NCBI RefSeq assembly: GCF_034531395.1
Contig: NZ_JARVCO010000002.1
Span: 310,001-374,000 of the forward strand
Source of the DNA: Pontiella agarivorans
GTDB lineage: Bacteria; Verrucomicrobiota; Kiritimatiellia; Kiritimatiellales; Pontiellaceae
DNA length: 64,000 nucleotides
Direction of reading: 5' to 3'
This document shows, piece after piece, positions 1,186-47,210 of the stretch. Position numbers and translations under genes: made by a program. Numbering within the stretch: the stretch's first letter is position 1; each line of letters starts with the position of its first letter. The notes beneath the pieces were generated by a model that saw only the letters and a list, made by a program, of their open reading frames with translations, did not search any database and had not been told where the DNA came from.

Positions 1186-1527
1186 ATGGAACTTTTACGC
1201 ATAGCACATGCTCTGGATGCCGAGTTGATCTGCGGTCCCGATGACTGGGAGAGTATGCAGATTGAGACGGTTTTTGCTTCGGACCTCATGAGTGATGTCC
1301 TGATGAGCGAACGGGAACAGATGCTGCTGATCACCTCGCTGTCGACTGAGCAGTCGATCCGCTCTGCAGGTATTGTCGGATCGGAAGCGGTGGTGATTGC
1401 CAATCATAAAACGGTGACGGAGGGCATGATTGAACTGGCGAAAGAGCAGGATATGACCCTGTTGGTTACCCGCCATCCGAAATATGAAGCTTCGGTGTGC
1501 ATCGGGCGCATTATGGAGCCGCAATGA
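1186..1527 (+). CDS. DRTGG-domain protein (first copy)
   Basis: This 113-residue protein consists of one DRTGG-like domain: an N-terminal helix (LLRIAHALDAELICG), a mid segment with ASDLMSDVL, a hydrophobic strand (QMLLITSL) and the IANHKTVTEGMIELAKEQDM helix. The segment VFASDLMSDVL corresponds to the conserved D-L-L/M-S-D-V element of the family. DRTGG domains occur with CBS domains and in phosphotransacetylase-type proteins and are thought to sense ligands; no activity is established. The ATG at 1186 follows TTGGAGAG. The stop overlaps the next gene's start (ATGA), so translation is probably coupled. Residues 27-113 resemble the protein at 2446-2790. Confidence 0.75.
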   Translation: MELLRIAHALDAELICGPDDWESMQIETVFASDLMSDVLMSEREQMLLITSLSTEQSIRSAGIVGSEAVVIANHKTVTEGMIELAKEQDMTLLVTRHPKYEASVCIGRIMEPQ

Positions 1528-17030: not shown

Positions 17031-17075
17031 TTTCCGGATGGTCCGGAAAGGCGGATGGGTGGCACAAGGATGTGC
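17031..17075 (+). promoter_or_regulatory. Two-hairpin leader element, flagellin 1
   Basis: Hairpin 1 is TTTCCGGA-TGG-TCCGGAAA (17031-17049). Hairpin 2 is GCACA-AGGA-TGTGC (17062-17075), presenting GGA in the loop within ACAAGGATGT, the CsrA-type target. The Shine-Dalgarno AAGGAGG (17100-17106) lies downstream. Confidence 0.7.
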
Positions 17076-17112
17076 AGCTCGTTTGATAAAACAAGGGCCA
17101 AGGAGGCACAAA

Positions 17113-17973: not shown

Positions 17974-17978
17974 GTTAC

Positions 17979-17994
17979 TTCCAATGGTTGGAAA
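17979..17994. repeat. TTCCAATGG..TTGGAA palindrome at flagellin 1 terminator
   Basis: TTCCAATGGTTGGAAA sits between the flagellin 1 stop and its terminator. Eroded versions occupy the same place after flagellin 2 (TTCCTGAGATTGGAA, 19165-19179) and flagellin 3 (TTCCAGAGATTGGAA, 20290-20304), so the repeat was copied with the gene unit and then diverged. Confidence 0.6.
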
Positions 17995-17996
17995 GG

Positions 17997-18025
17997 CGGG
18001 CTCCGTTTTCGGAGTCCGTTTTTTT
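17997..18025 (+). terminator. Terminator of flagellin 1
   Basis: CGGGCTCCG-TTTT-CGGAGTCCG with one G-T pair, then seven T's. Confidence 0.9.
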
Positions 18026-18051
18026 ATCTTTATTTCAGGCTTTTCGGAAAC

Positions 18052-18066
18052 CGGCAAAAATTACCG
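18052..18066. promoter_or_regulatory. Conserved imperfect palindrome upstream of flagellin 2 promoter
   Basis: CGGCAAAAATTACCG, 16 nt before the -35 box; same element as at 16944, with one mismatch in the inverted repeat. Confidence 0.45.
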
Positions 18067-18082
18067 ATTTGAGCATCTAATT

Positions 18083-18109
18083 TAAGTTCCGGGCTCCGTA
18101 GGCCGAATA
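18083..18109 (+). promoter_or_regulatory. Sigma-28 promoter, flagellin 2
   Basis: TAAGTTCC, 11 nt, GCCGAATA. Confidence 0.8.
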
Positions 18110-18127
18110 ACGTTCTATCCGCAGGAA

Positions 18128-18171
18128 TTTCCGGATGGTCCGGAAAGGCGGGGGGTGGCACAAGGACGTGC
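18128..18171 (+). promoter_or_regulatory. Two-hairpin leader element, flagellin 2
   Basis: Hairpin 1 is TTTCCGGA-TGG-TCCGGAAA (18128-18146). Hairpin 2 is GCAC-AAGGAC-GTGC (18158-18171) containing ACAAGGACGT. The ribosome site CCAAGGAGG follows about 24 nt later. Confidence 0.7.
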
Positions 18172-18208
18172 AGCTCGTTTGATAAAACAAGGGCCAAGGA
18201 GGCACACA

Positions 18209-19159
18209 ATGCAAGTCAGTAATAATATTTCATCATTCAATGTATGGAAAAACTATACCAACAACGTCAGCAGTCTGCGCGACTCGATGTCGAAGTTGTC
18301 TTCCGGCAGCCGCATCAATAACGCAGGTGACGATCCCTCAGGCCTGGCAATGAGTGAACGGCTGCGCACCCAGACCCGCAATACTTCAGCAGCGGCGAGC
18401 AACGTGGAAAACAAGCTCAATTATCTGCAGACCGCAGATTCGTGGATGCAGAAAATGCACGATATGCTCGGTCGTATGGGCGAACTGGCTGTAATGGCCA
18501 ATGACGGGACTAAGTCGACCACGGATAAAGATATTCTGCAGAAAGAATTTGCACAGATGCAGGATGAAATGAAGCGTATTACCGGGGCAACGACAAGCGA
18601 TACCGATGCTGCGGGAAAGTTCAATGGCCTTCGCCTGTTTCAGGCGGTTGATGCGGATACGAGCGGTGCATTGGATGGAGTTATTCAGCAGGTTGGCGCA
18701 GATGGCGGCCAGACGTTTGAAGGCGTTGCACTTGACCTGACGGCTGCGAATACGGACGTGATATATACCGACCTCGGTGCGGACGGTGCGCCCGCTGGAG
18801 GCGACGATACTGTATTTACCTGGGGAAGCCTGCTGACCAGCACGACCGATGGAAGTGGATTGAATATCGGATCCACCGGAGAGCCGGGAATGGCTGTTGG
18901 TGCAATTAATGCCGGGATTGATTACCTCAGTGGAAAACGTGCGGATGTCGGTGCGGAAATGAAACGCATGGACCAGACTCTGGACGGATTGCGCTCCTAC
19001 GAAGAAAATATCAGTGCCACTGAAAGCCGTATCCGCGATGTGGATGTGGCCAAGGAAACCGCTGAAATGTCGAAATACAACATTCTTCAGCAGGTTGGAA
19101 CGGCCATGTTGGCTCAGGCCAACCAGCTGCCGCAGGGTGTGCTGCAGCTTCTCGGCTAA
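18209..19159 (+). CDS. fliC: Flagellin 2
   Basis: At 316 residues this is the longest of the five flagellins. Its first ~95 residues match flagellin 3 almost exactly (TQTRNTSAAASNVENKLNYLQ). The central variable domain is extended (LGADGAPAGGDDTVFTWGSL), which should give the largest surface-exposed loop. The C-terminal D1/D0 is identical in pattern to flagellins 1 and 3 (EMKRMDQTLDGLRSYEENIS, ending LPQGVLQLLG). It is a monocistronic unit with sigma-28 promoter, leader hairpins and terminator. The ATG at 18209 follows CCAAGGAGGCACACA. Confidence 0.95.
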   Translation: MQVSNNISSFNVWKNYTNNVSSLRDSMSKLSSGSRINNAGDDPSGLAMSERLRTQTRNTSAAASNVENKLNYLQTADSWMQKMHDMLGRMGELAVMANDGTKSTTDKDILQKEFAQMQDEMKRITGATTSDTDAAGKFNGLRLFQAVDADTSGALDGVIQQVGADGGQTFEGVALDLTAANTDVIYTDLGADGAPAGGDDTVFTWGSLLTSTTDGSGLNIGSTGEPGMAVGAINAGIDYLSGKRADVGAEMKRMDQTLDGLRSYEENISATESRIRDVDVAKETAEMSKYNILQQVGTAMLAQANQLPQGVLQLLG

Positions 19160-19182
19160 GTTACTTCCTGAGATTGGAAAAG

Positions 19183-19212
19183 GCGGACTCTGTTTTCAGG
19201 GTCCGCTTTTTT
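19183..19212 (+). terminator. Terminator of flagellin 2
   Basis: GCGGACTCTG-TTTT-CAGGGTCCGC, 10 bp with one G-T pair, then six T's. Confidence 0.9.
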
Positions 19213-19238
19213 GTCTGTATTTCAGTTTTTTCGGAAAC

Positions 19239-19253
19239 CGGCAAAAATTACCG
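19239..19253. promoter_or_regulatory. Conserved imperfect palindrome upstream of flagellin 3 promoter
   Basis: CGGCAAAAATTACCG, 16 nt before the -35 box, identical to the flagellin 2 element. Confidence 0.45.
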
Positions 19254-19269
19254 ATTTAAGCCGATTGCT

Positions 19270-19296
19270 TAAGTTCAGGGATCGGTTGGTCGAATA
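19270..19296 (+). promoter_or_regulatory. Sigma-28 promoter, flagellin 3
   Basis: TAAGTTCA, 11 nt, GTCGAATA. Confidence 0.78.
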
Positions 19297-19315
19297 GTTT
19301 CATATCCGCAGGAAT

Positions 19316-19357
19316 TTCCGGAAGGTCCGGAAGGCGGTGAGTGGCACAAGGATGTGC
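19316..19357 (+). promoter_or_regulatory. Two-hairpin leader element, flagellin 3
   Basis: Hairpin 1 is TTCCGGA-AGG-TCCGGAA (19316-19332), shorter by one pair. Hairpin 2 is GCACA-AGGA-TGTGC (19344-19357), identical to flagellin 1. Confidence 0.7.
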
Positions 19358-19393
19358 AGCTCATGAGTATAAAAATCGCCAAGGAGGCACAAA

Positions 19394-20284
19394 ATGCAAG
19401 TCAGCAATAATATTTCATCATTCAATGTATGGAAAAACTATACCAACAACGTCAGCAGTCTGCGCGACTCGATGTCTAAACTTTCGTCTGGAAGCCGTAT
19501 CAATAACGCCGGGGATGATCCTTCCGGCCTCGCCATGAGCGAACGGCTGCGCACCCAGACCCGGAATACTTCAGCAGCAGCGAGCAACGTGGAAAACAAG
19601 CTGAACTATCTGCAGACGGCAGATTCGTGGATGCAGAAAATGCACGATATGCTCGGTCGTATGGGCGAGTTGGCTGTGATGGCTAACGATGACACCAAGT
19701 CGGATACAGATAAGGACATCCTGCAGAAAGAATTCTCCCAGATGCAGCAGGAAATTGAACGCATTGCCGGGGATAGCAATGTGGCAGGAGGGGGCGATGC
19801 GGATGCCGCCGGTAAGTTTAACGGACTGGCCTTGTTTCAGGGCGGAACCCCGATTTCTCAACAGGTGGGTGCAGATGGCGGACAGGTTTTCACTTCCGCA
19901 GCGTCGCTGGATCTTTCCGGCGCATCTACTGAAAACATTGGAACGGGGACCACTTGGGGCGCATTAATCACGTCAGGTGGAGCGCTTGATATTTCTGCAG
20001 GCGGGGATGCGGGTGCGGCCGTAACCGAGGTGAATGCAGCCATCGACTTCATCAGTGGGAAGCGTGCGGATGTCGGTGCGGAAATGAAACGTATGGATCA
20101 GACTCTGGACGGATTGCGCTCTTATGAAGAAAATATCAGTGCTACCGAAAGCCGTATCCGCGATGTGGATGTGGCCAAGGAAACCGCTGAAATGTCGAAA
20201 TACAACATTCTTCAGCAGGTTGGAACAGCGATGTTGGCCCAGGCCAACCAGCTGCCGCAGGGTGTGCTTCAGCTTCTCGGCTAA
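19394..20284 (+). CDS. fliC: Flagellin 3
   Basis: A 296-residue flagellin. D0/D1 segments are shared with flagellin 2. The middle carries a distinct Gly/Ala-rich insert (RIAGDSNVAGGGDADAAGKF) and TSAASLDLSGASTENIGTG. It ends QLPQGVLQLLG. Ribosome site CCAAGGAGGCACAAA, ATG at 19394. It is flanked by its own promoter, leader hairpins and terminator. Filaments of several flagellins are common where subunits are laid down at different positions; the order here cannot be read. Confidence 0.95.
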   Translation: MQVSNNISSFNVWKNYTNNVSSLRDSMSKLSSGSRINNAGDDPSGLAMSERLRTQTRNTSAAASNVENKLNYLQTADSWMQKMHDMLGRMGELAVMANDDTKSDTDKDILQKEFSQMQQEIERIAGDSNVAGGGDADAAGKFNGLALFQGGTPISQQVGADGGQVFTSAASLDLSGASTENIGTGTTWGALITSGGALDISAGGDAGAAVTEVNAAIDFISGKRADVGAEMKRMDQTLDGLRSYEENISATESRIRDVDVAKETAEMSKYNILQQVGTAMLAQANQLPQGVLQLLG

Positions 20285-20308
20285 GTTGCTTCCAGAGATT
20301 GGAAAAAG

Positions 20309-20337
20309 CGGGTTCCGTTTTCGGGGCCCGTTTTTTT
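20309..20337 (+). terminator. Terminator of flagellin 3
   Basis: CGGGTTCCG-TTTT-CGGGGCCCG with two G-T pairs, then seven T's. Confidence 0.9.
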
Positions 20338-20359
20338 ATGCATAGACCTTTTGAGGAAA

Positions 20360-20374
20360 CGGCAAAAATTTCCG
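20360..20374. promoter_or_regulatory. Conserved imperfect palindrome upstream of flagellin 4 promoter
   Basis: CGGCAAAAATTTCCG, 18 nt before the -35 box. It is kept although the surrounding sequence has diverged from copies 1-3. Confidence 0.45.
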
Positions 20375-20392
20375 CTTGGAATGTCGGGAACT

Positions 20393-20419
20393 TAAGAGAA
20401 AGAACCAAGCGGTCGATTA
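20393..20419 (+). promoter_or_regulatory. Sigma-28 promoter, flagellin 4
   Basis: TAAGAGAA, 11 nt, GTCGATTA. Confidence 0.72.
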
Positions 20420-20437
20420 ACCAATTGCCATTAGAAG

Positions 20438-20486
20438 TTTTGGGTGGTCCAGAACGAATGGCAAGCAACACAAGGACGTGTTGCTT
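20438..20486 (+). promoter_or_regulatory. Two-hairpin leader element, flagellin 4 (covarying)
   Basis: Hairpin 1 is TTTTGGG-TGG-TCCAGAA (20438-20454), 7 bp with two G-U pairs: the sequence differs from copies 1-3 but pairing and TGG loop are kept. Hairpin 2 is AAGCAACAC-AAGGAC-GTGTTGCTT (20463-20486 region), a perfect 9-bp stem longer than in the other copies, with the same AAGGAC loop. Confidence 0.75.
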
Positions 20487-20519
20487 TGAAGTAAACTGCA
20501 TATAACCAAGGAGGAAACC

Positions 20520-21401
20520 ATGCAGATCAGTAATAATACCTCGGCGTTCAATGTATGGAAAAACTATACAAACAACGTCAGTAACCTGCGCGACTCAATG
20601 TCAAAGCTGTCTTCCGGCAGTCGCATCAATAACGCAGGCGATGATCCGTCGGGACTGGCCATGAGCGAACGACTGCGTACGCAGTCGCGCAACACGGCCG
20701 CAGCGGCGGGGAATGTGGAAAACAAGTTGAACTACTTGCAGACCGCAGATTCCTGGATGCAGAAAATTCACGACATGCTCGGTCGAATGGGCGAGCTGGC
20801 TGTGATGGCGAACGATGGTACGAAATCAACAACCGATAAAGATGTTCTGCAGAAAGAGTTCAAGCAGATGCAGGATGAAATTTCCCGGATTGTTGACACG
20901 ACCGACGGTGCTGGAAAGTTCAATGGATTGGCTCTGTTTGGCGGTACTGCTGTTTCGCAGCAGGTGGGTGCAGATGGCGGACAGAGCTTTACCGGTGCAG
21001 CGATCGACCTGACTCAGGGCAGTGCGGATACGCTTGCCGGGGGCAGCAAGTGGGGCGACCTGATCAACAGTGGTCTGGCCGATGCGGCTTCCGGTTTGAT
21101 TGCAATTTCCGGTTCAGAAGGTGATGCCGGAGAGGCTGTGTCTGTAATCAATGAAGGAATCGATTATATCAGCACGAAACGTGCGGATATCGGTGCTGAA
21201 ATGAAACGTATGGACCAGACCCTGGACGGGCTGCGCTCCTACGAAGAAAACATCAGTGCCACCGAAAGTCGGATCCGCGATGTGGATGTGGCCAAGGAAA
21301 CCGCAGAGATGTCCAAGTACAGCATCCTGCAGCAGGTCGGAACGGCAATGTTGGCGCAAGCGAATCAGTTGCCGCAGGGCGTGCTTCAGCTTCTGGGCTA
21401 A
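20520..21401 (+). CDS. fliC: Flagellin 4
   Basis: A 293-residue flagellin, slightly apart from copies 1-3: it begins MQISNNTSAFNVWKNYTNNV and ends in SILQQVGTAMLAQANQLPQG..., and its leader has diverged outside the hairpins. The variable centre contains TQGSADTLAGGSKWGDLIN. The N-terminus is shared with flagellin 5, so it may be the ancestral type of the tandem. The ATG at 20520 follows CCAAGGAGGAAACC. Confidence 0.95.
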   Translation: MQISNNTSAFNVWKNYTNNVSNLRDSMSKLSSGSRINNAGDDPSGLAMSERLRTQSRNTAAAAGNVENKLNYLQTADSWMQKIHDMLGRMGELAVMANDGTKSTTDKDVLQKEFKQMQDEISRIVDTTDGAGKFNGLALFGGTAVSQQVGADGGQSFTGAAIDLTQGSADTLAGGSKWGDLINSGLADAASGLIAISGSEGDAGEAVSVINEGIDYISTKRADIGAEMKRMDQTLDGLRSYEENISATESRIRDVDVAKETAEMSKYSILQQVGTAMLAQANQLPQGVLQLLG

Positions 21402-25848: not shown

Positions 25849-26712
25849 ATGCAGATATCGAATAATACAACGGCGTTCAACGTCTGGAAAAATTATAACA
25901 GCAATATTGAAGGTCTTCAGAATTCGATGGCCAAATTATCGTCCGGCAGCCGCATAGAAAATGCCGGTGATGATGCTTCCGGACTGGCCATGAGCGAACG
26001 GCTGCGTACGCAGTCGCGTAATACGTCCGCTGCAGCAGGCAATGTGGAAAACAAATTGAACTATCTGCAGACGGCCGATTCCTGGATGCAGAAAATGCAC
26101 GATATGCTCGGCCGTATGGGGGAGCTTGCGGTGATGGCCAACGATGGCACGAAGTCGGATATCGATCGCACGGTATTGCAGCAGGAGTTTGCTCAGATGC
26201 AGGATGAAATTGCCCGCATCACTACCGGGGCCAATGCCGCCGGAAAATTTAATGGCGTTGCTCTTTTTCAGGGCGGTCCCGGCATTATGCAGCAGGTGGG
26301 AGCCGACGGGGGGCAGACCTTTTCTTCCGCCGCAGTGGATTTGACGACAGCCAGTGCTGACGATTTGGGCAATGGAACAACGTGGGGCGAATTGATTGAC
26401 AGCGCGGGGAGCATTACTATTTCAGCGCAACCCGATGCTGAAACCGCCGTTACTGAATTGCAGTTGGGAATCGATTTCCTGAGTGGAAAACGGGCGGATG
26501 TCGGGGCTGAGATGAATCGCATGGAGCAGACGCTGGACGGGCTGCGAAGTTATGAAGAAAATATCATGGCCACAGAAAGCCGGATTCGCGACGTGGACGT
26601 TGCAAAGGAAACGTCTGAAATGACGAAGTATCAGATTCTTCAGCAGGTCGGTACCGCCATGTTGGCGCAGGCCAATCAGCTTCCCGGGAATGTTATGCAA
26701 CTGTTTGGCTGA
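25849..26712 (+). CDS. fliC: Flagellin 5 (divergent, downstream of csrA)
   Basis: A 287-residue flagellin. D0/D1 are clearly of the same family but differ in SNIEGLQNSMAKLSSGSRIE, EMNRMEQTLDGL and an ending QLPGNVMQLFG in place of LPQGVLQLLG. It begins 26 nt after the csrA stop with AAAGGAT as ribosome site. It has no sigma-28 promoter, no two-hairpin leader and no terminator of the type used by copies 1-4. It is probably read from the fliW-csrA sigma-54 transcript, hence made earlier and free of the CsrA leader switch. It may form the hook-proximal filament; that is inference. Confidence 0.93.
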   Translation: MQISNNTTAFNVWKNYNSNIEGLQNSMAKLSSGSRIENAGDDASGLAMSERLRTQSRNTSAAAGNVENKLNYLQTADSWMQKMHDMLGRMGELAVMANDGTKSDIDRTVLQQEFAQMQDEIARITTGANAAGKFNGVALFQGGPGIMQQVGADGGQTFSSAAVDLTTASADDLGNGTTWGELIDSAGSITISAQPDAETAVTELQLGIDFLSGKRADVGAEMNRMEQTLDGLRSYEENIMATESRIRDVDVAKETSEMTKYQILQQVGTAMLAQANQLPGNVMQLFG

Positions 26713-31428: not shown

Positions 31429-31547
31429 TTGCTGATAGGATCAATCACGTTTATATTCGATAAATTGAAAAGTCCGCTTGTGTTTACTTTTTAGCTAGAT
31501 ACTGTTTGTCGGGATTTTCTGTATTGAATGTAGTAGGGAGACGCGGT

Positions 31548-32204
31548 GTGATTTTAGATGCTGATGGAACGGGACGAATGGTGCGGCTTTTGCGGCATCG
31601 GTTATTGAATGTTGTATCCGGTTTGAAATCGGCCAATAGTTTGTTGGCTTCTGAACTTGATGATCGGCTTACGGCGCGGGAGCGCGAATATTTCCCGCTG
31701 ATGGACAAGGAATACGATAAGATATCCGACATCGTCGGGCGTATTGAGGCTCTTTTCGGTATTCTGCCGAAGTCGGAATTCGTTCCGTTGCAGGATGCTT
31801 TGTCCATGGTGGTGACGAATCTGAGAGAAACCTTCCCTATGGCAGAGATCCGGCTGGATATTGTTTGCAAAGATTCCGAGCAATTGGTGTGCAAGACGAC
31901 GATCGAAACCGTGCTGCATGAAGCGGTGGGCAATGCCTACGAAATTTCGAGAAAACCCGTTAAAATCGTGATTTGCGATGTTGATGATCGGCTTTCAATT
32001 CGTGTTTTAGATCAGGGGGAGGTTCTATCAACGGAGGTTCAGGATATGGCCTTTGAGCCTTTTTATTCAACACGCAGCCGGCATTTAGGAGTGGGGTTAT
32101 CCATTGTCAAACGGCTGGTTGAGCATCGTAGTGGAACGGTATCTATCGGTGTTGAAAATGATGAAAACGTGGTGGAATTTATTCTGCCTCGCATGAGTTT
32201 ATAG
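31548..32204 (+). CDS. Cytosolic histidine kinase (FlrB/FleS-like position)
   Basis: A compact 218-residue kinase with no sensor domain. H17 in LLRHRLLNVVSGLKSANSLL is the likely phosphoacceptor. The ATPase part has N-box HEAVGNAYEIS, FYSTRSRHLGVGLSIVKRLV and a VEFILP end. The G1 box is reduced to VLDQGEV. The start is GTG 31548 with GGGAG 7 nt upstream; a TTG at 31506 would add 14 unlikely residues. It lies 12 nt before the sigma-54 activator gene, matching FlrB-FlrC and FleS-FleR pairs that control middle flagellar genes. Confidence 0.75.
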   Translation: MILDADGTGRMVRLLRHRLLNVVSGLKSANSLLASELDDRLTAREREYFPLMDKEYDKISDIVGRIEALFGILPKSEFVPLQDALSMVVTNLRETFPMAEIRLDIVCKDSEQLVCKTTIETVLHEAVGNAYEISRKPVKIVICDVDDRLSIRVLDQGEVLSTEVQDMAFEPFYSTRSRHLGVGLSIVKRLVEHRSGTVSIGVENDENVVEFILPRMSL

Positions 32205-32216
32205 GAGACAGAGGTT

Positions 32217-33599
32217 ATGGGGAAAACTGAAAGTTTCACCGATATCAAAGTACTGGTAGTGGAAGACGATGATCTGCTGCGCCGGGTCATGTATGACCGA
32301 TTGACGGCGAGTGAATGCGAAGTGATGGCCGCGGATTCACTGCATGATGCTCACCGGTTACTCGCTTCTGCTTCGTTCGATATTATGATCACTGATATTC
32401 GGTTGCCTGATGGAAGCGGGTTGGACCTGCTGGAGGAACAGCGGGAAGCGGCTCCGGAGATGGCGATTGTGGTTATGACGGCATTTGCCGATGTGGATAC
32501 TGCGGTCTCCGCCCTGAAGCAGGGCGCATTTGACTATCTTTCAAAACCATTTGAAGACGAGCAATTGTATAAAATTTTACGAAACCTTAAAGACAAGAGT
32601 AAGCTGACGCGGAAAGTGGAAACACTTAAGGATTATTCCTTGCGCGAGTTCGAAGGGTTTGTGCAGTTTGATCAAATGATCGGCACATCAGCGATGACTG
32701 AAATTTTCAATATGGCGGGACGGGTGGCCAAAAGCGGTGCCACGGTGCTGATTCTCGGGGAGAGTGGAGCGGGGAAAGGCATGTTGTCCAAAGCCATTCA
32801 TCGTTCCAGTCCGCGCGTAAAAGAACCGTTTGTTGAAATTAACTGTTCGGCGATTCCTGAACACCTGCTTGAAAGCGAACTTTTCGGATATGAATCGGGT
32901 GCGTTCACGGATGCGAAAAATAAAAAACTCGGTCTCTTTGAAGTGGCCGAAGGCGGTACCATCTTTTTAGATGAGATCGGTGATATGGATTTAGCCCTGC
33001 AGGCCAAGGTGCTCAAGGTTCTGGAAGACCGGGAATTCCGGCGTCTCGGAGCATTACGTCCGACGCAAGTGGATGTCCGGATTATTGCGGCGACAAACCG
33101 TAATCTCAAAGAACTGGTTAAGGAAGGAACCTTCAGAGAGGATTTATTCTATCGACTGTCTGTTGTGCCCATCAAAGTTCCTCCATTGCGGAATCATCCG
33201 AACAGTATCGAACCGATGGCCAATTATTTTCTGCAGTTGTTCGCGAAGCAGATGGGGCGTGTTGTGCAAGGATTTGAGGCCGATGCATTGAGCATGCTTC
33301 GTGCATACAATTGGCCGGGCAATGTACGTGAACTGCGCAATGTCATTGAACGGGGGTTGATTCTGAGTGACGGTGACTACATTAAAGCTTCTGCTCTGAA
33401 TCTGGACGTGGGAGCGGCACCGGCAAGCGCCGAAGAGGGATCCAATCTGACTGAGCTGCTACCGTTGGCGGAAATAGAAAAACGACATATTAAACGGGTC
33501 TTGAAAACGTTAGAGGGCAACCGTAAGGCTGCGGCAGAAGTGTTGCAGATTCACCGGACGACGCTGTACAAGAAAATAGAAGTCTACGAGCTGGGATAG
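32217..33599 (+). CDS. flrC: Sigma-54-dependent response regulator (FlrC/FleR type)
   Basis: A 460-residue NtrC-family activator. Receiver (10-125) with D60 in ITDIRLPDG and Lys in YLSKPFED. AAA+ domain (about 150-385) with Walker A GESGAGKG (181-188), sigma-54 contact loop GAFTDA (228-233) in place of the usual GAFTGA, Walker B GGTIFLDEIGDM, and arginine-finger region REDLFYRLSVVPI. A C-terminal Fis-type HTH (about 415-455, NRKAAAEVLQIHRTTLYKKI) binds enhancers. It would hydrolyse ATP to open sigma-54 promoters. It is the only complete activator in the window, so it is the best candidate for all flagellar -24/-12 sites. Confidence 0.93.
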   Translation: MGKTESFTDIKVLVVEDDDLLRRVMYDRLTASECEVMAADSLHDAHRLLASASFDIMITDIRLPDGSGLDLLEEQREAAPEMAIVVMTAFADVDTAVSALKQGAFDYLSKPFEDEQLYKILRNLKDKSKLTRKVETLKDYSLREFEGFVQFDQMIGTSAMTEIFNMAGRVAKSGATVLILGESGAGKGMLSKAIHRSSPRVKEPFVEINCSAIPEHLLESELFGYESGAFTDAKNKKLGLFEVAEGGTIFLDEIGDMDLALQAKVLKVLEDREFRRLGALRPTQVDVRIIAATNRNLKELVKEGTFREDLFYRLSVVPIKVPPLRNHPNSIEPMANYFLQLFAKQMGRVVQGFEADALSMLRAYNWPGNVRELRNVIERGLILSDGDYIKASALNLDVGAAPASAEEGSNLTELLPLAEIEKRHIKRVLKTLEGNRKAAAEVLQIHRTTLYKKIEVYELG

Positions 33600-40802: not shown

Positions 40803-41059
40803 GTGCTGTATTAGTTAATCTCGCGATGGCCGTTGGTTCCTTGTTCAGCATATTTACACTGGTGATCGGCTTGTTACGGGGCGTGCCGATCTGGACCGGA
40901 CTGTTCCGTGCATCTATTGTGATGGCAATTGGGACCGTTGTGGTTATGGCCTTTTTTCGTTTTTTCAATGTGGTTCTCTTTCGTTTTCTTGCAGAAAAAC
41001 TTAAGGAACATCGTGAGCGGGAAGCTGTCCGGGATCCTGAAGGGATACCTAAAGGATGA
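40799..41059 (+). CDS. Small two-TM protein between flhG and fliA
   Basis: An 86-residue membrane protein: two predicted TM helices (VNLAMAVGSLFSIFTLVIGL and ASIVMAIGTVVVMAFFRFF) and a basic cytosolic tail. The family is not recognised. It overlaps flhG and fliA by 4 nt each, so it is translated as part of the flhA-fliA operon. Co-operonic placement suggests a flagellar role of unknown kind. Confidence 0.6.
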   Translation: MSAVLVNLAMAVGSLFSIFTLVIGLLRGVPIWTGLFRASIVMAIGTVVVMAFFRFFNVVLFRFLAEKLKEHREREAVRDPEGIPKG

Positions 41060-41841
41060 TCGCCGGAGCACCAGTTAAGCCGCCGGTTGTGATCAAGCAG
41101 TCTCATGAGGCACTTTGGGATGCGTTTCAAAATAACGGTGCAGAGGTTATAGACGCGCTGATTGAGGCCTATATGCCGCTCGCCCACCGGGCTCTGGAGC
41201 GTATCTCGATGCGATTGCCTTCGCATATTGCTGTCGATGATCTTTTGCAGGCGGCACTCGTTGGACTCTATAAAGCGGTTCTGGACTTTGATTCAACACG
41301 CGGCGTGCCTTTCGAAGGCTATGCCTATCCCCGTATCCGAGGAGCTATTCTGGATGAATTGCGTTCCTGTGATTCGCTTTCCCGCAGTAAACGCAAGCGG
41401 GTGGATCAGGTGGAACAGGTGATTTCTGAATGGATGAAAGAGTACGGCGAGATGCCTGCTGAAGAAGAAATCGCTGCCGAACTGGGGATGAGTATTGCGG
41501 AATTCAATCAGTTAATGGATGAAGCCAAACCTCTGTGTTCGCTGGATGCCGGCGGGGTCGATATGAAACCGCTGCATGAAACTCTTGCGGATCCGAACGG
41601 AGCATCGGAAGAGGGGGCTCACCGACACGATCTTCAACGGCTGCTGCGTATCGGATTCAGTAAGCTTGATCAGCGAGAACAGAAGATTCTTTATCTCTAC
41701 TATTTTGAAGAACTTCGTTTGAGTGAGATCGCCATACTTTTCGACCTGACTGAAGCGAGAATTTCACAAATCCATGCGTTGAGCGTCGTACGTCTGCGAG
41801 CCGTTTTGCTCGATCAGTTCCCCTCGGAATTTGCGGCTTAA
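41056..41841 (+). CDS. fliA: Flagellar sigma-28 factor FliA
   Basis: A 261-residue sigma-70-family factor with regions 2, 3 and 4: MPLAHRALERISMRLPSHIA, AALVGLYKAVLDFDSTRGVPFEGYAYPRIRGAILDELR (the -10 binding region 2.4), and a region 4 HTH (LYYFEELRLSEIAILFDLTE). It should read TAAG-N11-GYCGAWTA promoters found before flagellins 1-4. It is the end of the sigma-54-driven flhA operon, giving a sigma-54-then-sigma-28 cascade. Confidence 0.95.
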   Translation: MIAGAPVKPPVVIKQSHEALWDAFQNNGAEVIDALIEAYMPLAHRALERISMRLPSHIAVDDLLQAALVGLYKAVLDFDSTRGVPFEGYAYPRIRGAILDELRSCDSLSRSKRKRVDQVEQVISEWMKEYGEMPAEEEIAAELGMSIAEFNQLMDEAKPLCSLDAGGVDMKPLHETLADPNGASEEGAHRHDLQRLLRIGFSKLDQREQKILYLYYFEELRLSEIAILFDLTEARISQIHALSVVRLRAVLLDQFPSEFAA

Positions 41842-41934: not shown

Positions 41935-41950
41935 AGGCATGAATCGTGCT
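41935..41950 (+). promoter_or_regulatory. Sigma-54-like promoter for signalling operon
   Basis: AGGCATGAATCGTGCT keeps the GG-GC spacing and GCAT/TGCT boxes; the first T is A. Predicted start near 41961. The rest of the 41842-42014 gap shows no gene. Confidence 0.55.
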
Positions 41951-42014
41951 TTGCTAGTAAATGCGGACCCGAAATAACGTATGGCAGGGAGGGGTTACCG
42001 GATGGCGGGGTTTG

Positions 42015-43676
42015 ATGGAGAATAACAGTCAAGAACAGGAAATGGACAAAGGGTGCATTCTGATTGTGGACGACAGTCCTGCTATGCAACACCACCTCAA
42101 GACTTTATTGGGTAAAGCCGGCTATGAGCTTCATCTCGCGGCTCTGGGGGAAGACGCGTGCGTGCTCGCAAAACGAATTCGGCCTCATTTGATTCTGCTG
42201 GATGTCATGTTGCCGGATATGTCCGGTTATGAAGTTTGTAAATCGCTCAAACAAACGGAAGAAACCCGCGATATTCCGGTGGTATTTGTGAGTAGCATTA
42301 CCGAGGTCGAGGAACGGATAAAAGGACTGAAACTGGGGGCTCTTGACTTTATTGCGAAGCCGATTGAGAAGAAAATTTTACTCACTAAAACCGACACGTA
42401 TGTTCGGCTCTGCCGTGATGACCGTATGCTGAAGTCGATGCATGCTGAGCTTCAGGTTTCCTATTCCAAGCACAAGCAGTTTTCTCTTGCTCTGGACAAT
42501 GCCTCTGAAGCCGTGGTCTTTACCGATACGCAGGGACAGATCACCTATTTCAATTATTTATTTCAATTGCTGACCCAGTATTCCCCCGAAACCGAAGCGG
42601 ATCGGATGCTGGCCAATTATTTTATCAATCCGGCAAATCTTCAGACCGAATTATATAGAGTCTCATTAAAGAGTACTCCTTCTACGGTTGAATCCCGGAT
42701 GAAAAACAGTACGAGGGAATTTCCGGTCATCATTAAGTGCTCGGCAATTTTGGATGAAAGTGGATGTCCGAAGGGCTTAATGCTGGTGATTCAAGATCAG
42801 ACCGAGCGGATCAAATCCGATGCAGAACGTAAAAGTCTGGAGATGGAATTGTTCCATGCTCAAAAACTCGAAGCCGTGGGCCAGTTGGCATCGGGTATTG
42901 CCCATGAAATCAATACGCCGGTTCAATTTATTGGCGATAACATACACTTTATTCAGGATTCGCTGGTTCAGTTGTTCGATCTTCAGCAGGTGCAGGCAAA
43001 GCTTTTGGAAGCGGCGAAATCGGCAGGATTGGATGCCGCTCTGACGGATGCGGTTGAACAGGCACAGGTCAATGCCGATTTGGACTATCTTCTCGAGGAA
43101 TTGCCCCTTGCCATTTCGCAGTCGCTGGAAGGGGTTGACCGTGTGGCCTCAATCGTACTGGCCATGAAGGAATTTGCTCATCCCGGAACGACAGAGAAAG
43201 CGCCCGCCTGTTTGCAGGAAGCCATTGAAACGACATTAACCGTGGCACGTAACAAGTGGAAGTATGTCGCTACGGTGGAAACTGATTTCGACGATGCGCT
43301 TCCGCCGGTTCCATGCCTGATAAGTGAATTCAATCAGGTCATCCTTAATTTGGTCGTTAACGCCTGTGATGCCATCAGTGATATTGTGGAGGGCACCGGT
43401 GAGAAGGGGCATATACTGATTTCGACGCGATTGGCGGGAGCTCATGCGGAAGTGAGCGTGCGGGATAGCGGTGGTGGTATCCCTGAAAAAATACAAAGCC
43501 GGATATTCGATCCGTTTTTTACAACCAAAGATGTTGGTCGCGGATCCGGCCAGGGGCTGGCTATTGCTCGGGAAGTCATTGTGAATAAGCACGGTGGTAA
43601 ATTCTTTTTTGAGACTGAAGTGGGGGAGGGTACAACATTTATAATTCAGCTTCCTTTGGAGTCAGATCATGGATGA
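42015..43676 (+). CDS. Receiver-PAS-histidine kinase
   Basis: A 553-residue cytosolic kinase with an N-terminal receiver (D63 in LLDVMLPDMSG), a PAS domain (about 165-275; SLALDNASEAVVFTDTQGQI), a DHp domain with H297 (LASGIAHEINTPVQFI) and a HATPase domain (QVILNLVVNACDAI, DSGGGIP, GRGSGQGLAI). The AHEINTP-QFI... kinase type often pairs with stand-alone receivers. The start ATG 42015 is supported by GGCGGGG; an ATG at 41961 coincides with the promoter start. It overlaps the next gene by 8 nt. Confidence 0.85.
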   Translation: MENNSQEQEMDKGCILIVDDSPAMQHHLKTLLGKAGYELHLAALGEDACVLAKRIRPHLILLDVMLPDMSGYEVCKSLKQTEETRDIPVVFVSSITEVEERIKGLKLGALDFIAKPIEKKILLTKTDTYVRLCRDDRMLKSMHAELQVSYSKHKQFSLALDNASEAVVFTDTQGQITYFNYLFQLLTQYSPETEADRMLANYFINPANLQTELYRVSLKSTPSTVESRMKNSTREFPVIIKCSAILDESGCPKGLMLVIQDQTERIKSDAERKSLEMELFHAQKLEAVGQLASGIAHEINTPVQFIGDNIHFIQDSLVQLFDLQQVQAKLLEAAKSAGLDAALTDAVEQAQVNADLDYLLEELPLAISQSLEGVDRVASIVLAMKEFAHPGTTEKAPACLQEAIETTLTVARNKWKYVATVETDFDDALPPVPCLISEFNQVILNLVVNACDAISDIVEGTGEKGHILISTRLAGAHAEVSVRDSGGGIPEKIQSRIFDPFFTTKDVGRGSGQGLAIAREVIVNKHGGKFFFETEVGEGTTFIIQLPLESDHG

Positions 43677-44904
43677 AAACAGCACAATGGAGGCGGTAAC
43701 AGCTAAAAAGAAAATTCTGTTCGTCGACGATGAACCTAATATTTTACAGGGGTTCCGGCGGCTGTTACGGAATCACCGCACTCGATGGGATATGGAATTT
43801 GTGGCATCGGGACAGGAGGCGCTGGAGAAACTGGCGACGGACGATTTCGATATTATTGTGACGGATCTGTGCATGCCGACGATGAGCGGTGTGAACTTGC
43901 TTGATCAAGTGAAGACGCTGTATCCGAATATGATCCGCTTCATTCTTTCCGGTCATGCGGATTCGGATATGATCATGCAATCGGTCGGTGTGGCCCATCA
44001 GTTTTTAGCGAAACCTTGCGATGCGGAACTTTTTCAGGAAGCCATTACACGGGCAGTTCATTTGCAAAAGCTGCTTCATCCCAAACAGGTTCAGAGCATC
44101 ATTCAGGACGGGGCGTCGTTGCCCACGTTGCCGGAACTTTATCAGGAATTGACCGCGGTTTTACAATCGCGCAACAGCAATGCTGAAAAAATAAGCGCAG
44201 TTATTTCAAAGGATGTATCCATTACAGCGAAGGTGCTGCAATTGGTCAATTCCGCCTTTTTCGGCCTCACGCGAAGGGTCGACAGTATTCCTCAGGCTGT
44301 GGGACTTCTCGGAGCGGGGACGATCAGTAATATCGTTATGATCTCCCAGGTGTTCGGGGAATTTGATCCCGGCAAGGTGGAAGAGTTCGGTATTCGCGAT
44401 ATTTATGCGCATTCGCTTACCGTCGGTTCTTATGCTGCCCGCCTGGTCAAGGCGGTCGGGCATTCCCGTAAATCAATTGATGAAGCGATGCTGGCCGGCA
44501 TGGTGCATGAGCTCGGTAAACTTGTGTTGATCAACAGTAATAATGAGACGTGGCTGGAACTCTATCGTAATCGCAAGCAGTTGACCCAACCGTTCTGTGA
44601 GGCGGAGCGCGAGGCACTGGGCACCACCTATGCCGAAGTCGGTGCCTATCTGATTGGCTTGTGGGGACTGTCTAATTATGTGGTAGAAGCTGTGGCCGAT
44701 CATATTCGTCCGGCGACTGCATTGAGTTCGGGAAGTTTCGGTTCGCTGGCGGCACTTCATTTGGCCAATGGTTTTTATTCGCATCAGAATCCGGATTTTG
44801 AAGGGAAATCCCCGCTCGATATGGATTATCTTGAATCGCTGGGGATTGTTGATCGGATTGATGAATTTCAACAACTATGCGCTGTCGGCGCGGATGAAAA
44901 ATGA
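43669..44904 (+). CDS. Receiver-HDOD response regulator
   Basis: A 411-residue protein: receiver (13-130; D66 in IVTDLCMPTMSG) fused to an HDOD domain (about 140-345; SLPTLPELYQELTAVLQS, ISKDVSITAKVLQLVNSAFF, AMLAGMVHELGKLVLI). HDOD is a non-canonical HD-type fold that usually acts as a signalling scaffold rather than a phosphodiesterase. It is second in the operon with a kinase upstream, so it is a likely phosphoacceptor. The output is unknown. Confidence 0.85.
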   Translation: MDENSTMEAVTAKKKILFVDDEPNILQGFRRLLRNHRTRWDMEFVASGQEALEKLATDDFDIIVTDLCMPTMSGVNLLDQVKTLYPNMIRFILSGHADSDMIMQSVGVAHQFLAKPCDAELFQEAITRAVHLQKLLHPKQVQSIIQDGASLPTLPELYQELTAVLQSRNSNAEKISAVISKDVSITAKVLQLVNSAFFGLTRRVDSIPQAVGLLGAGTISNIVMISQVFGEFDPGKVEEFGIRDIYAHSLTVGSYAARLVKAVGHSRKSIDEAMLAGMVHELGKLVLINSNNETWLELYRNRKQLTQPFCEAEREALGTTYAEVGAYLIGLWGLSNYVVEAVADHIRPATALSSGSFGSLAALHLANGFYSHQNPDFEGKSPLDMDYLESLGIVDRIDEFQQLCAVGADEK

Positions 44905-44954
44905 CGGTTTGAATGCCGGCGGAAGCATCGGACCAGTAAAAAAAGGTTTATATT

Positions 44955-46091
44955 TTGAAAAACCAGATTCTCTTTGTAGATGATGAACAGAATGTTCTCG
45001 ACGGTATCCGGCGTCAATTACGCAGGCAGTTCGAGATCGACACTGCTCTTGGGCCTGATGAAGGACTCAGATACATTGAAGAGGGAAAGTCATATGCAGT
45101 GGTTGTATCGGATATGCGCATGCCGGGTATGGATGGCATCAGCTTCCTCAACCGGGTGGCACAGCTGTCGCCTTTCACCGTGCGCATGATGCTCACGGGT
45201 AATGCTGACCAAAAGACCGCCAGTGACGCCGTTAACAAGGGGAATATCTTCCGGTTTATGAACAAGCCCTGTCCGACGGAAACCATGTCCATGCATCTGA
45301 AGGATGCCCTGCTGCAGTTCGAATTGGTTCATGCTGAAAAGGAACTGTTGGAAAAAACTCTTAAAGGCAGTATCGAGGTATTGGTCGAGATTCTTGCACT
45401 GACGAATCCTGTAGCTTTCAGTCGTGCCGAACGGATCAAATACTATATGTCTCAGTGCGTGCTGGCTCTGGGCAGGCATGATCTTTGGAAGTTTGAGGTG
45501 GCCGCCATGTTTTCGCAAATGGGCTATGTGACTATCCCCACTGATATCATGGAAAAATCTTTTGCGGGAATGGAACTGACTGATACCGAGTCGGCTATGA
45601 TTACTGAGCACGCAAAGGATACCCATCGAATGATTGATAAGATTCCCCGTCTTGAGGATGTGGGAAAAATGATTGAGGTTATGGATTCCGATGATTGCGG
45701 AGAATGCGAAGGGGATGTCGTTGCTCTTGGCGGCCAGCTTCTGCGGACCATCATTGAATTTGACAGGCTGATGTTGCAGGGAGCGCGGCCCTATCAGGCG
45801 CTGCATACCATGCGGCAAGGGGCAGTCCCTTTCAACGAGCGTCTGCTCAAACTTCTTGAAGAAGTTCAGCCGCCTCAAATCGAAAAAACCGTTAAGTGTA
45901 TCCACGTTCAGGATTTACATATCGGTATGGTGTTGGCCGAGGACATCCGTAATACCAGTAATACTTTGATTGTGAGTAAAGGCCAGTCGGTCAATGGTTT
46001 GATGCAACGGCACTTGGGGAATTTTCTTCGGCAGAAAACCATTGGCGAAAAAATTCGCGTATATGAAGAACGGCAGGTTTTTACCGTATGA
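44955..46091 (+). CDS. Receiver fused to a degenerate HD-GYP domain
   Basis: A 378-residue protein: receiver (5-120; D53 in VVSDMRMPGMDG) followed by an HD-GYP-like fold (about 135-290). The metal-binding HD of the family's LLHDIGKIGIP is replaced: FSQMGYVTIP, with S187-Q188 in the HD position. A TEHAKDTHRMIDKIP helix retains one His of the EH..H pattern. It is therefore probably not a c-di-GMP phosphodiesterase but a phospho-dependent scaffold. A C-terminal ~70-residue domain (CIHVQDLHIGMVLAEDIRN) resembles the DUF3391/HD-GYP accessory element. TTG start 44955 with AGG upstream. Confidence 0.7.
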   Translation: MKNQILFVDDEQNVLDGIRRQLRRQFEIDTALGPDEGLRYIEEGKSYAVVVSDMRMPGMDGISFLNRVAQLSPFTVRMMLTGNADQKTASDAVNKGNIFRFMNKPCPTETMSMHLKDALLQFELVHAEKELLEKTLKGSIEVLVEILALTNPVAFSRAERIKYYMSQCVLALGRHDLWKFEVAAMFSQMGYVTIPTDIMEKSFAGMELTDTESAMITEHAKDTHRMIDKIPRLEDVGKMIEVMDSDDCGECEGDVVALGGQLLRTIIEFDRLMLQGARPYQALHTMRQGAVPFNERLLKLLEEVQPPQIEKTVKCIHVQDLHIGMVLAEDIRNTSNTLIVSKGQSVNGLMQRHLGNFLRQKTIGEKIRVYEERQVFTV

Positions 46092-46104
46092 TCGGGATGT
46101 CGTT

Positions 46105-46806
46105 ATGAAAGAAATCTTTCGAATTCTGATCGTCGACGACGATGCAAGCTTCAGGAGCGCGCAAAAGCGCAACGTACGGCGTATGCACCTGCGCATGAAT
46201 GTGCAAGTGGAAATTCTCGAGGCGGCGAACGGGAGCGAAGCGTTGGAAATGATTAAGTCCCAATCGCCTGGATGCGTCCTGCTTGATCATAATATGCCTG
46301 GCGGTTCCGGGTTGAGCTGTCTGAAAAACATGCTGGATTATGATCCGGGACTGGCCATCATTATGCTGACAGGGCAGGGGTCCGAACAGCTGGCAGTCGA
46401 TGCCATGAAAAATGGAGCAATGGACTATCTGGTTAAAGGTTCCATCTCGCCCGATGAGCTTCGACGTGCCATCCTCAATGCCATTGAAAAAGTTGAATTA
46501 AGGCGAACTATCGAGAGCCAGCGTGAAGAGTTGCTGGATGCTGAGCGTCAGCGAGTCATGATTGAGAGTCTGGGAACCGCCTGCCACCATATCGGGCAGC
46601 CCGCTACGGTGATCAATGCCTACCTGCAAATGATGGAACAGCAGGAAACCGATGGCGAAACGAGAGAAATGATTGCGGCCTGCATGAAAGCCTCCGAGGC
46701 GATGGCCGAGATTCTTCAGAAGCTCCAGTTTGTCAGTCAATATCGTGAAACCCCCTACCTTCCGGGATCAGAGCATGTCGGCGACGCCATTATTGCATTA
46801 GACTGA
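46105..46806 (+). CDS. Receiver with kinase-like DHp helix but no ATPase domain
   Basis: A 233-residue protein: receiver (4-125; D61 in LLDHNMPGGSG) plus a C-terminal helical segment with H161-H162 in LGTACHHIGQPATVINAYL, the X-region of a DHp dimerisation domain. No N-, G1- or G2-box follows. It could receive phosphate from the kinase at 42015 or act as a phosphotransfer intermediate. An ATG at 46105 is chosen; the open frame continues upstream to 46042 inside the previous gene without a ribosome site. Confidence 0.65.
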   Translation: MKEIFRILIVDDDASFRSAQKRNVRRMHLRMNVQVEILEAANGSEALEMIKSQSPGCVLLDHNMPGGSGLSCLKNMLDYDPGLAIIMLTGQGSEQLAVDAMKNGAMDYLVKGSISPDELRRAILNAIEKVELRRTIESQREELLDAERQRVMIESLGTACHHIGQPATVINAYLQMMEQQETDGETREMIAACMKASEAMAEILQKLQFVSQYRETPYLPGSEHVGDAIIALD

Positions 46807-46832: not shown

Positions 46833-46848
46833 TGGCATTGAGACTGCT
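46833..46848 (+). promoter_or_regulatory. Sigma-54 promoter for flgB operon
   Basis: TGGCATTGAGACTGCT, GG-GC distance 12; flgB ATG 13 nt after the -12 C. AGGGAGG sits only 2-3 nt from the ATG, too near to serve as a normal ribosome site. Confidence 0.8.
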
Positions 46849-46859
46849 TTAAGGGAGGC

Positions 46860-47210
46860 ATGAATGAAACAGTTGAAATTCTAGGCAAGCTGATGGATGC
46901 AACCGCGCTCCGTCAGAAAGTGCTTTCCAATAACCTGGCCAATGCCAATACCCCCGGATATATCCGAAAGGATGTCGAGTTCAGTGCGGCTTTGGCCGAT
47001 GCACTGGATGACGGTGTTGATGATATTCGTAAGGTACAGCCCGAAGTGATTTCCGATACCGATGCTCCGTTGGATAGCCGGGGAAACAGCGTTTCACTTC
47101 AAAAGGAAATGGGCGAAATTGCCCAGAATGCACTGCTTTATGATTTCGCCGCGGAAATGACAGGACAAAAATTCAACCTGCTCCGCAAAGCCATTTCAGG
47201 AACTAAGTAG
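46860..47210 (+). CDS. flgB: Flagellar proximal rod protein FlgB
   Basis: A 116-residue rod protein starting MNETVEILGKLMDATALRQK, with the family motif VLSNNLANANTPGYIRKDV and C-terminal AQNALLYDFAAEMTGQKFNLLRKAI. It is exported and forms the base of the rod above the MS ring. It heads the operon flgB-flgC-fliE-F-G-H-I-J-motE-fliK. The ATG lies at the predicted transcription start. Confidence 0.94.
   Translation: MNETVEILGKLMDATALRQKVLSNNLANANTPGYIRKDVEFSAALADALDDGVDDIRKVQPEVISDTDAPLDSRGNSVSLQKEMGEIAQNALLYDFAAEMTGQKFNLLRKAISGTK

What the first reader, a model, noticed from the sequence alone, without database searches (positions are those of the whole stretch)
42015..46806. A four-gene phosphorelay-like operon inside the flagellar locus without che genes
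Receiver-PAS-kinase, receiver-HDOD, receiver-degenerate HD-GYP, and receiver-DHp helix without ATPase form one operon under a sigma-54-like site. Four receivers and one catalytic kinase, with no CheA/W/methyl-accepting proteins nearby, suggest a branched relay feeding the motor or the regulator at 32217. The last protein (H161/H162, no ATP site) could be the phosphotransfer hub.
Basis: partly seen in the sequence, partly recalled or inferred. Interest (0 to 1): 0.58.

Follow-up and report, generated by a model that had tools for sequence, protein, structure and literature searches.

The report
Flagellum-linked four-receiver signalling operon
Next to its flagellum genes this marine bacterium, which shows no sign of the usual chemotaxis machinery, carries one signalling enzyme and three switch proteins whose output parts look non-enzymatic; relatives of one of these switches occur almost only in bacteria that have flagellum genes, so the set probably helps to control the flagellum.

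Summary
The four genes are real, intact and under purifying selection: REC-PAS-kinase, REC-HDOD, REC-dead HD-GYP, and REC-DHp without ATPase. The genome (Pontiella agarivorans NLcol2) has no CheW and no MCP match anywhere, which strengthens "no che". Three things change the reading. (1) The address is recent: in two of five flagellated Pontiella genomes the intact cassette lies outside the flagellar locus, and flgB keeps its own sigma-54-type promoter in all five. (2) The tie to flagella is still strong: relatives of the dead HD-GYP protein occur in 19 of 48 FliG-bearing and 0 of 339 other genomes of a phylum-wide sample (not corrected for phylogeny), often in a kinase / REC-HDOD / REC-dead-HD-GYP cluster, once beside flgG-flgA and once beside cheW-MCP-cheB. 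(3) The last protein belongs to an apparently undescribed family of ATPase-less DHp domains with a near-invariant CHHxxQP motif (profile matches in 147 of 288 genomes of the class). Best reading: a flagellum-coupled branched two-component switch whose outputs act by protein contact. A phosphotransfer role for the last protein is plausible but unproven; the motor or regulator 32217 as target is unsupported. Published cells were non-motile.

The parts
42015..43676 (+). P1, 553 aa: REC-PAS-DHp-HATPase histidine kinase (H-box GIAHEINTP), the only complete kinase of the operon (an ORF start at 41961 also exists; the 42015 start aligns with relatives)
   Evidence: dN/dS 0.073-0.085
43669..44904 (+). 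P2, 411 aa: REC-HDOD response regulator
   Evidence: (HDOD E 2.7e-48); dN/dS 0.104-0.154
44955..46091 (+). P3, 378 aa: REC-dead HD-GYP (HD_5) response regulator; its HD domain family tracks flagella across the phylum
   Evidence: dN/dS 0.067-0.089
46105..46806 (+). P4, 233 aa: REC followed by a two-helix DHp-like hairpin without ATPase; motif C160-H161-H162-I-G-Q165-P166
   Evidence: dN/dS 0.055-0.061
41935..41950 (+). sigma-54-like site upstream of P1 (AGGCATGAATCGTGCT), poorly conserved
   Evidence: same site in G020, degraded in G011, another site in G021, none in G016
46833..46848 (+). sigma-54-type site of flgB (TGGCATTGAGACTGCT), between the cassette and flgB, present in all five flagellated Pontiella genomes whether or not the cassette is upstream
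41056..41841 (+). whiG-type sigma factor gene (name recalled), upstream neighbour; whiG and flgB are about 67 bp apart in G021 and 95 bp in G016, where no cassette lies between
46860..47210 (+). flgB (name recalled), downstream neighbour
31506..33599 (+). HATPase protein (31506-32204) next to the NtrC-type regulator (32217-33599): the regulator's likely own kinase

Best explanation
This is the Pontiella form of a flagellum-coupled two-component module that recurs across the window's phylum. Shown: a kinase, a REC-HDOD and a REC-dead-HD-GYP protein form its usual core, with REC-DHp(HH) added in the window's class; strong relatives of the dead HD-GYP protein are confined to FliG-bearing genomes except one that is 59% complete; all four proteins are under purifying selection. 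Inferred: P1 autophosphorylates on its H-box histidine in response to a cytoplasmic signal read by its PAS domain and passes phosphate to the receivers of P2, P3 and P4. P2 and P3 have no DNA-binding domain and (P3) no catalytic residues, so phosphorylation switches protein contacts, most likely with flagellar regulators or c-di-GMP enzymes, which sets flagellar synthesis or use. P4 is a receiver-gated DHp dimer that takes phosphate from, or returns it to, the other receivers (phosphotransfer or phosphatase/sink), tuning the branch. Sensors vary between lineages (REC-PAS here; HAMP, Cache, PAS or GAF elsewhere) while the outputs stay.
For: P4 orthologues and FliG occur in the same 5 of 28 genus genomes. 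rpoB rejects these five as one clade (AU p 1e-4), and cassette and flagella go together in 3 of 3 independent pairs, too few for significance. In G021 and G016 the cassette is not linked to the flagellar locus yet is present. Class sample: strong P3-HD matches in 9 of 15 FliG+ and 1 of 273 FliG- genomes; genomes with only weak, generic HD-GYP matches are FliG+ in 2 of 41. Phylum sample: 19 of 48 against 0 of 339. Kinase / REC-HDOD / REC-dead-HD-GYP gene clusters in G058, G138, G071, G082, G533, G531, G512 and G340; beside flgG-flgA in G058, beside cheW-MCP-cheB in G531. dN/dS 0.055-0.154 for P1-P4. Variable sensors. Degenerate HD-GYP regulators act through other enzymes in HnoD (PMC6335343, passage) and, as proposed, NosR (PMC12570481, passages); HDOD proteins alter swimming in several bacteria (PMC11004494, PMC6543031, passages).
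Against: No phosphotransfer, binding or motility datum exists for any of these proteins. P. agarivorans showed no motility or flagella in culture (PMC10880615, passages). Twenty-nine of 48 FliG+ genomes lack the strong P3-HD, so it is not needed for flagella. Kinase and dead HD-GYP occur without HDOD in four loci read in family f56, and in G530, G509 and G528 the cluster is incomplete or dispersed. The tests across genomes are not corrected for shared ancestry beyond the genus. G137 (59% complete, no FliG found) has HDOD + dead HD-GYP.
Confidence: 0.62

Rival explanations
1. Branched phosphorelay with P4 as the phosphotransfer hub feeding the motor or the 32217 regulator.
For: P4 keeps a histidine at the HisKA acceptor position and a DHp-like hairpin; CHHxxQP in 31 of 34 members read without motif selection; a G058 relative passes the HisKA cut-off (32.2 vs 26.9 bits).
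Against: The acidic residue that follows the acceptor His in HisKA kinases (recalled; E in P1) is H in P4; the known DHp-type phosphotransferases ChpT and Spo0B keep it (recalled). 32217 has its own kinase-like neighbour. No CheY-type link to the motor was found; outside the class the core clusters read have no P4.
Confidence: 0.25
2. P4 is not a phosphotransferase but a pairing partner or reader: its DHp hairpin pairs with the DHp of P1 (as RetS pairs with GacS) or binds a phosphorylated receiver (as the pseudokinase DivL does), and its own receiver gates this.
For: Foldseek places the DHp model among kinase DHp domains, the RetS-GacS co-complex included (E 0.045-0.43). DivL reads DivK~P without kinase activity (PMC4211667, passages).
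Against: The near-invariance of both histidines suggests chemistry rather than docking alone; DivL has lost its histidine.
Confidence: 0.25
3. The module is a general c-di-GMP or lifestyle (biofilm) controller, Hno/NosR-like, that tracks flagella only because motile species carry more signalling genes.
For: P3 and P2 match the NosR family model best (180.5 and 122.1 bits, cut-off 400). Hno and Nos systems control biofilm formation. The Fisher tests here ignore phylogeny and genome size.
Against: Generic HD-GYP matches do not track flagella (FliG+ in 2 of 41 against 9 of 10). Large non-flagellated genomes of the genus (G002 8.7 Mb, G028 7.4 Mb) lack the cassette too. Physical links to flagellar or che genes exist in G000/G011/G020, G058 and G531.
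Confidence: 0.2
4. A passenger cassette that dropped into the flagellar locus by chance and has no role in motility.
For: It sits upstream of an undisturbed flgB promoter, and elsewhere in G021 and G016; its gene tree (G000+G020, 99/98) conflicts with rpoB (G000+G011, 100/99).
Against: Exact match of presence with flagella in the genus, and the class and phylum association.
Confidence: 0.08

Closest known systems
HnoK/HnoS-HnoB/HnoC/HnoD network (Shewanella oneidensis)
   Same: Kinase input branching to three response regulators, one with a degenerate HD-GYP output that acts by contact (passage of PMC6335343).
   Different: Hno has an EAL enzyme and a DNA-binding regulator; here the other outputs are HDOD and an ATPase-less DHp, and the association is with flagella.
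NosR of the nosRPK operon (NCBIfam NF053512)
   Same: REC + degenerate HD-GYP beside a histidine kinase gene; nosK and nosP deletion raises swimming and biofilm (passages of PMC12570481).
   Different: P3 scores 180.5 bits against a cut-off of 400; the operon also holds HDOD and DHp regulators and no gene of NosP kind (judged from the four genes' domains).
LvrB and other hybrid response regulators (REC-DHp-CA)
   Same: REC followed by DHp; LvrB is among P4's NCBIfam and Foldseek matches.
   Different: LvrB keeps the ATPase domain and autokinase activity (PMC5863495, abstract and passages); P4 ends after the hairpin.
ChpT / Spo0B DHp-type phosphotransferases
   Same: DHp used as relay histidine by a protein that is not a kinase (ChpT: abstract in listing; Spo0B recalled).
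   Different: They keep a degenerate CA-like domain and an acidic residue after His (recalled); P4 has a receiver in front, no CA, and HH.
SadB, GsmR and other HDOD proteins that affect flagella
   Same: HDOD output linked to flagellar expression or swimming (passages of PMC6543031 and PMC11004494).
   Different: SadB has a YbaK-like partner domain rather than a receiver.

Membership tests
Chemotaxis (Che) system | CheW-domain proteins (CheW, CheA) in the genome | tested here: not met
   PF01584: none in G000; also none in G011, G020, G021; 6 in G016
Chemotaxis (Che) system | methyl-accepting chemotaxis proteins | tested here: not met
   PF00015: none in G000
Two-component receivers (P1-P4) | receiver domain with its acceptor aspartate and switch residues | tested here: met
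   Response_reg above cut-off in all four; DD, acceptor D, T/S and K positions kept in the alignments; which residues these are is recalled
HD-GYP c-di-GMP phosphodiesterase (P3) | HD pair and HHxxxDGxGYP motifs (recalled) | tested here: not met
   HD aligns to SQ or SH, and GYP to a gap or unrelated residues, in the 7 relatives aligned
NosR family NF053512 (P3) | curated cut-off of 400 bits | tested here: not met
   180.5 bits
Hno network | EAL phosphodiesterase and DNA-binding regulator as co-targets of the kinase | tested here: not met
   Neither domain occurs in the four genes; elsewhere in the genome not searched
HisKA DHp domain (P4 C-terminal part) | Pfam HisKA above its cut-off, and DHp hairpin fold | tested here: inconclusive
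   P4 21.2-23.5 bits, cut-off 26.9; 8 of 14 A1 members match at E <= 0.01; the G058 relative passes with 32.2 bits; the two-helix model's first 14 Foldseek matches are kinase DHp domains, but at E 0.045-0.23
Histidine kinase / hybrid response regulator (P4) | HATPase_c (CA) domain after the DHp | tested here: not met
   No HATPase in P4; none follows the DHp in the relatives printed
Phosphorelay histidine phosphotransferase (P4) | phosphate transfer through H161 | not testable with these tools
   His position conserved in 31 of 34 members; activity needs biochemistry

The most novel reading that the evidence does not exclude
A second sensory pathway for flagella, distinct from CheA-CheY, is spread through the phylum: a variable sensor kinase acts on REC-HDOD and REC-dead-HD-GYP proteins that steer flagellar output by contact alone, and in the window's class a new kind of ATPase-less receiver-gated DHp domain (CHHxxQP) serves as its phosphate hub. 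In the che-less Pontiella lineage it is the main sensory input left to the flagellum.
Probability: 0.22. Interest if true: 0.8.

Novelty: new variant of a known kind. Interest (0 to 1): 0.55.

Why it matters
It gives a testable candidate for how flagella could be controlled where chemotaxis genes are missing, and it links HDOD and dead HD-GYP regulators, whose mechanism is poorly known, to flagella over a whole phylum by presence and absence. The CHHxxQP family of ATPase-less DHp domains (soluble REC-DHp, membrane HAMP-DHp, REC-TM-DHp, DHp-REC and others) would, if it moves phosphate, be a separate kind of relay protein in PVC bacteria.

Tried and rejected
Rejected: location as proof of function (cassette elsewhere in G021 and G016). 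Rejected: cassette as a plain substitute for che (CheW+ genomes G016, G058, G071, G082 and G138 carry the cassette or its core). Rejected as uninformative: decay of the CheY-binding N-terminus of FliM. The motif is LSPDEMAALR in G000, G020 and G011 and LSSEEIAALR in G021, but LSNDEMAALS in CheW+ G016 and LSPEELSALR in CheW+ G037, while CheW-less G168 keeps LSQDEVDAL; for G138, G186 and G195 the script picked a wrong frame, so only 12 of 15 were read. Weak: common sigma-54 control of the cassette. The terminator scan found nothing decisive: 9 sites, 6.3 expected, none in the P4-flgB gap. VIA-align on full-length P4 tested only the receiver part, residues 2-138. Papers: searches listed no paper that I could see, from titles and starts of abstracts, on this module or on ATPase-less HH-DHp domains; searches gave the Pontiella agarivorans, Hno and HDOD papers used above.
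Full report
WHAT IS THERE. The window is part of a 4,436,865-bp, 12-contig genome; these figures equal those published for Pontiella agarivorans NLcol2 (passages of PMC10880615; lineage). P1 (42015-43676) is REC-PAS-HisKA-HATPase; P2 (43669-44904) REC-HDOD; P3 (44955-46091, TTG start) REC-HD_5; P4 (46105-46806) REC plus a weak HisKA match and no ATPase. All four receivers keep the acceptor aspartate and the switch residues in the alignments. dN/dS between G000 and G020 or G011 is 0.055-0.154 for the four genes, so all are kept by selection. The published cells showed no motility and no flagella although flagellar genes are present.

NO CHE, GENOME-WIDE. There is no CheW-domain match and no MCP match anywhere in the genome, with the searches ringing in 7 of 14 control genomes. 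Among the 15 FliG-bearing genomes of the class sample, G000, G011, G020 and G021 (96-97% complete) and G168 (79% complete) have no CheW match; the other 10 have 1-11. CheR, CheB and CheD were not searched in the window's genome.

LOCATION IS RECENT. In G000, G011 and G020 the cassette lies between whiG and flgB. In G021 and G016 the same four genes, in the same order and contiguous, lie on other contigs beside unrelated genes, and whiG and flgB are about 67 and 95 bp apart. The flgB site (TGGCATTGAGACTGCT; TGGCATTGGGTCTGCT in G016) stands directly before flgB in all five, so the cassette sits upstream of a promoter it does not disturb. P1-P4 are 44-65% identical in comparisons that involve the G021 or G016 copies, while FlhA, FliG, FlhG, WhiG and FlgB are 61-95% identical in the same comparisons. 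The cassette tree joins G000 with G020 (99/98) whereas rpoB joins G000 with G011 (100/99); transfer between species is one explanation. rpoB is a single gene, and the flagellar genes themselves do not decide (58/81 for G000+G011).

TIE TO FLAGELLA. In the genus (28 genomes) P4 orthologues (E <= 6e-84) and FliG above cut-off occur in the same five genomes; G006 has a FliG match below the cut-off and was counted negative. rpoB of 27 of these genomes (G010 had none) rejects the five as one clade (AU p 1e-4); cassette and flagella change together in 3 of 3 independent pairs, which cannot reach significance. For P3 the alignment A2 of the dead HD domain (7 rows) gives a clear gap in the class sample: 10 genomes with best E <= 1.4e-66, the next genome at 6e-12. 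Nine of the 10 are FliG+ (of 15 FliG+); G137, one of 273 FliG- genomes and 59% complete, is the exception. Without the genus it is 4 of 10 FliG+ against 1 of 250. The 41 genomes with only weak, generic HD-GYP matches include 2 FliG+, so this is not a property of HD domains at large. In the phylum sample of 387 genomes 19 have strong matches (E <= 4e-33, next genome 1e-16); all 19 are among the 48 FliG+ genomes, none among the other 339 (Fisher p 1.5e-19, uncorrected for ancestry). The 48 include G320 and G428, whose FliG matches are weak. The two samples share genomes; the 12 strong genomes outside the class belong to 8 families. The groups are the tool's; I take them to be GTDB's class Kiritimatiellia and phylum Verrucomicrobiota (recalled).

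CORE AND VARIANTS. Kinase, REC-HDOD and REC-dead-HD-GYP genes lie together in G058 (two places), G138, G071, G082 (contig ends there; its dead HD-GYP gene is placed), G533, G531, G512 and G340 (order differs in G340). G530, G509 and G137 show HDOD with dead HD-GYP, G528 is dispersed, G482 is a short contig, four loci of family f56 have kinase and dead HD-GYP without HDOD, and the others read (a second G340 copy, G349, a second G512 copy) are less clear. P4-type genes complete the set in Pontiella, G058, G138 and G071; G045 and G176, which have no FliG match, have a kinase, a receiver protein and a P4-type gene without the dead HD-GYP protein. In G058 the set starts about 1.2 kb after flgG-flgA. 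In G531 it abuts a cluster with CheW, an MCP and CheB. In the f56 locus L291 a more distant REC-HD_5 protein sits among CheR, CheB and CheD genes divergent from flgB-flgC-fliF-fliG; L290, L292, L293 and L294 look alike but were not domain-checked. The kinases carry different sensors: HAMP, Cache, PAS or GAF, against REC-PAS in Pontiella.

P4 AND ITS DOMAIN FAMILY. P4's C-terminal part is shared with membrane proteins (two membrane stretches and a HAMP-like stretch, by reading) that also end after the hairpin. A profile of 14 such domains (A1) matches 147 of 288 genomes of the class at E <= 0.001. Among the best matches the arrangements are REC-DHp, TM-DHp, REC-TM-DHp, a kinase-like part before TM-DHp, and DHp-REC; none of those printed has an ATPase after the DHp, and weaker matches were not all read. 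The motif CHHxxQP is present in 31 of 34 domains read without selecting for it; the 3 exceptions are the membrane paralogues of G000, G011 and G020. In the named genome collection the pattern CHH[IL]GQPA gave 116 stretches, 91 confirmed; the 80 kept loci bear titles of Pontiella-, Kiritimatiella-, Lentisphaera- or Verrucomicrobia-type bacteria or the PVC group, or name no lineage. AlphaFold gives a receiver plus a 65- and a 27-residue helix (mean pLDDT 83.7); the DHp part alone gives the same hairpin (80.1), whose first 14 Foldseek matches are kinase DHp domains, though at E 0.045-0.23. The fold is therefore likely, not proven; a G058 relative passes the HisKA cut-off.

HOW IT PROBABLY WORKS. 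Shown: composition, conservation, association with flagella, loss of the HD-GYP catalytic motifs in P3, absence of DNA-binding or known enzymatic output domains in P2-P4. Inferred: P1 feeds the three receivers; P2 and P3 act by contact, as HnoD does (passage) and NosR is proposed to do (passages); HDOD proteins alter swimming or flagellar genes in Pseudomonas, Xanthomonas and Campylobacter (passages). The target may be flagellar gene expression, the motor, or a c-di-GMP enzyme; nothing here decides. The NtrC-type regulator at 32217 has a HATPase protein next to it, so it is not an obvious target. P4 could pass or remove phosphate at H161, or pair with or read other DHp or receiver domains; DivL (passages) and the RetS-GacS structure (listed) are precedents for the latter.

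VERDICT. The operon is tied to the flagellum less by its address than by its distribution. I file it as a new variant of two-component signalling: it is not a chemotaxis system, not a member of the NosR family by its cut-off, and P4 is not a histidine kinase.

Noticed in passing
L144:1138-1896 (G000 C10 near 267473), L145, L143: The membrane-anchored DHp paralogues of P. agarivorans and two relatives have lost the CHHxxQP motif (WQKMSRLT, WQKLSRLT, YKRLDKPT), while the paralogue of G016 keeps it; an ORF that may be an Hpt protein (by reading only) follows L144.
   Followed up: partly
window 12547, 16887(-), 23024, 24990, 33683, 34507, 37769, 46833, 60325: Stereotyped sigma-54-type sites close to TGGCATC-N4-CTGCT recur before flagellar genes; an RpoN-like protein lies at 10543-12018 (name from reading the sequence).
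   Followed up: partly
window 17038-21401 and 25849-26712: Five flagellin-like genes, four in a row, with near-identical ends and variable middles, in a species reported as non-motile.
   Followed up: no
window 1497-2459: Protein with two CBS domains and an anti-sigma-type HATPase, between short ORFs at 1120-1527 and 2446-2790 that resemble each other by eye.
   Followed up: no
L290-L294 (family f56), L291:10033-13925: In genomes of family f56 a REC-HD_5 protein sits between cheB and cheD, divergent from flgB (domain-checked in L291 only): a second REC-HD protein tied to chemotaxis genes.
   Followed up: partly
rpoB of G000 and G002-G028: Flagella are scattered on the rpoB tree of this genus and the cassette tree disagrees with rpoB, which points to loss or exchange of flagellar loci between species.
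   Followed up: partly
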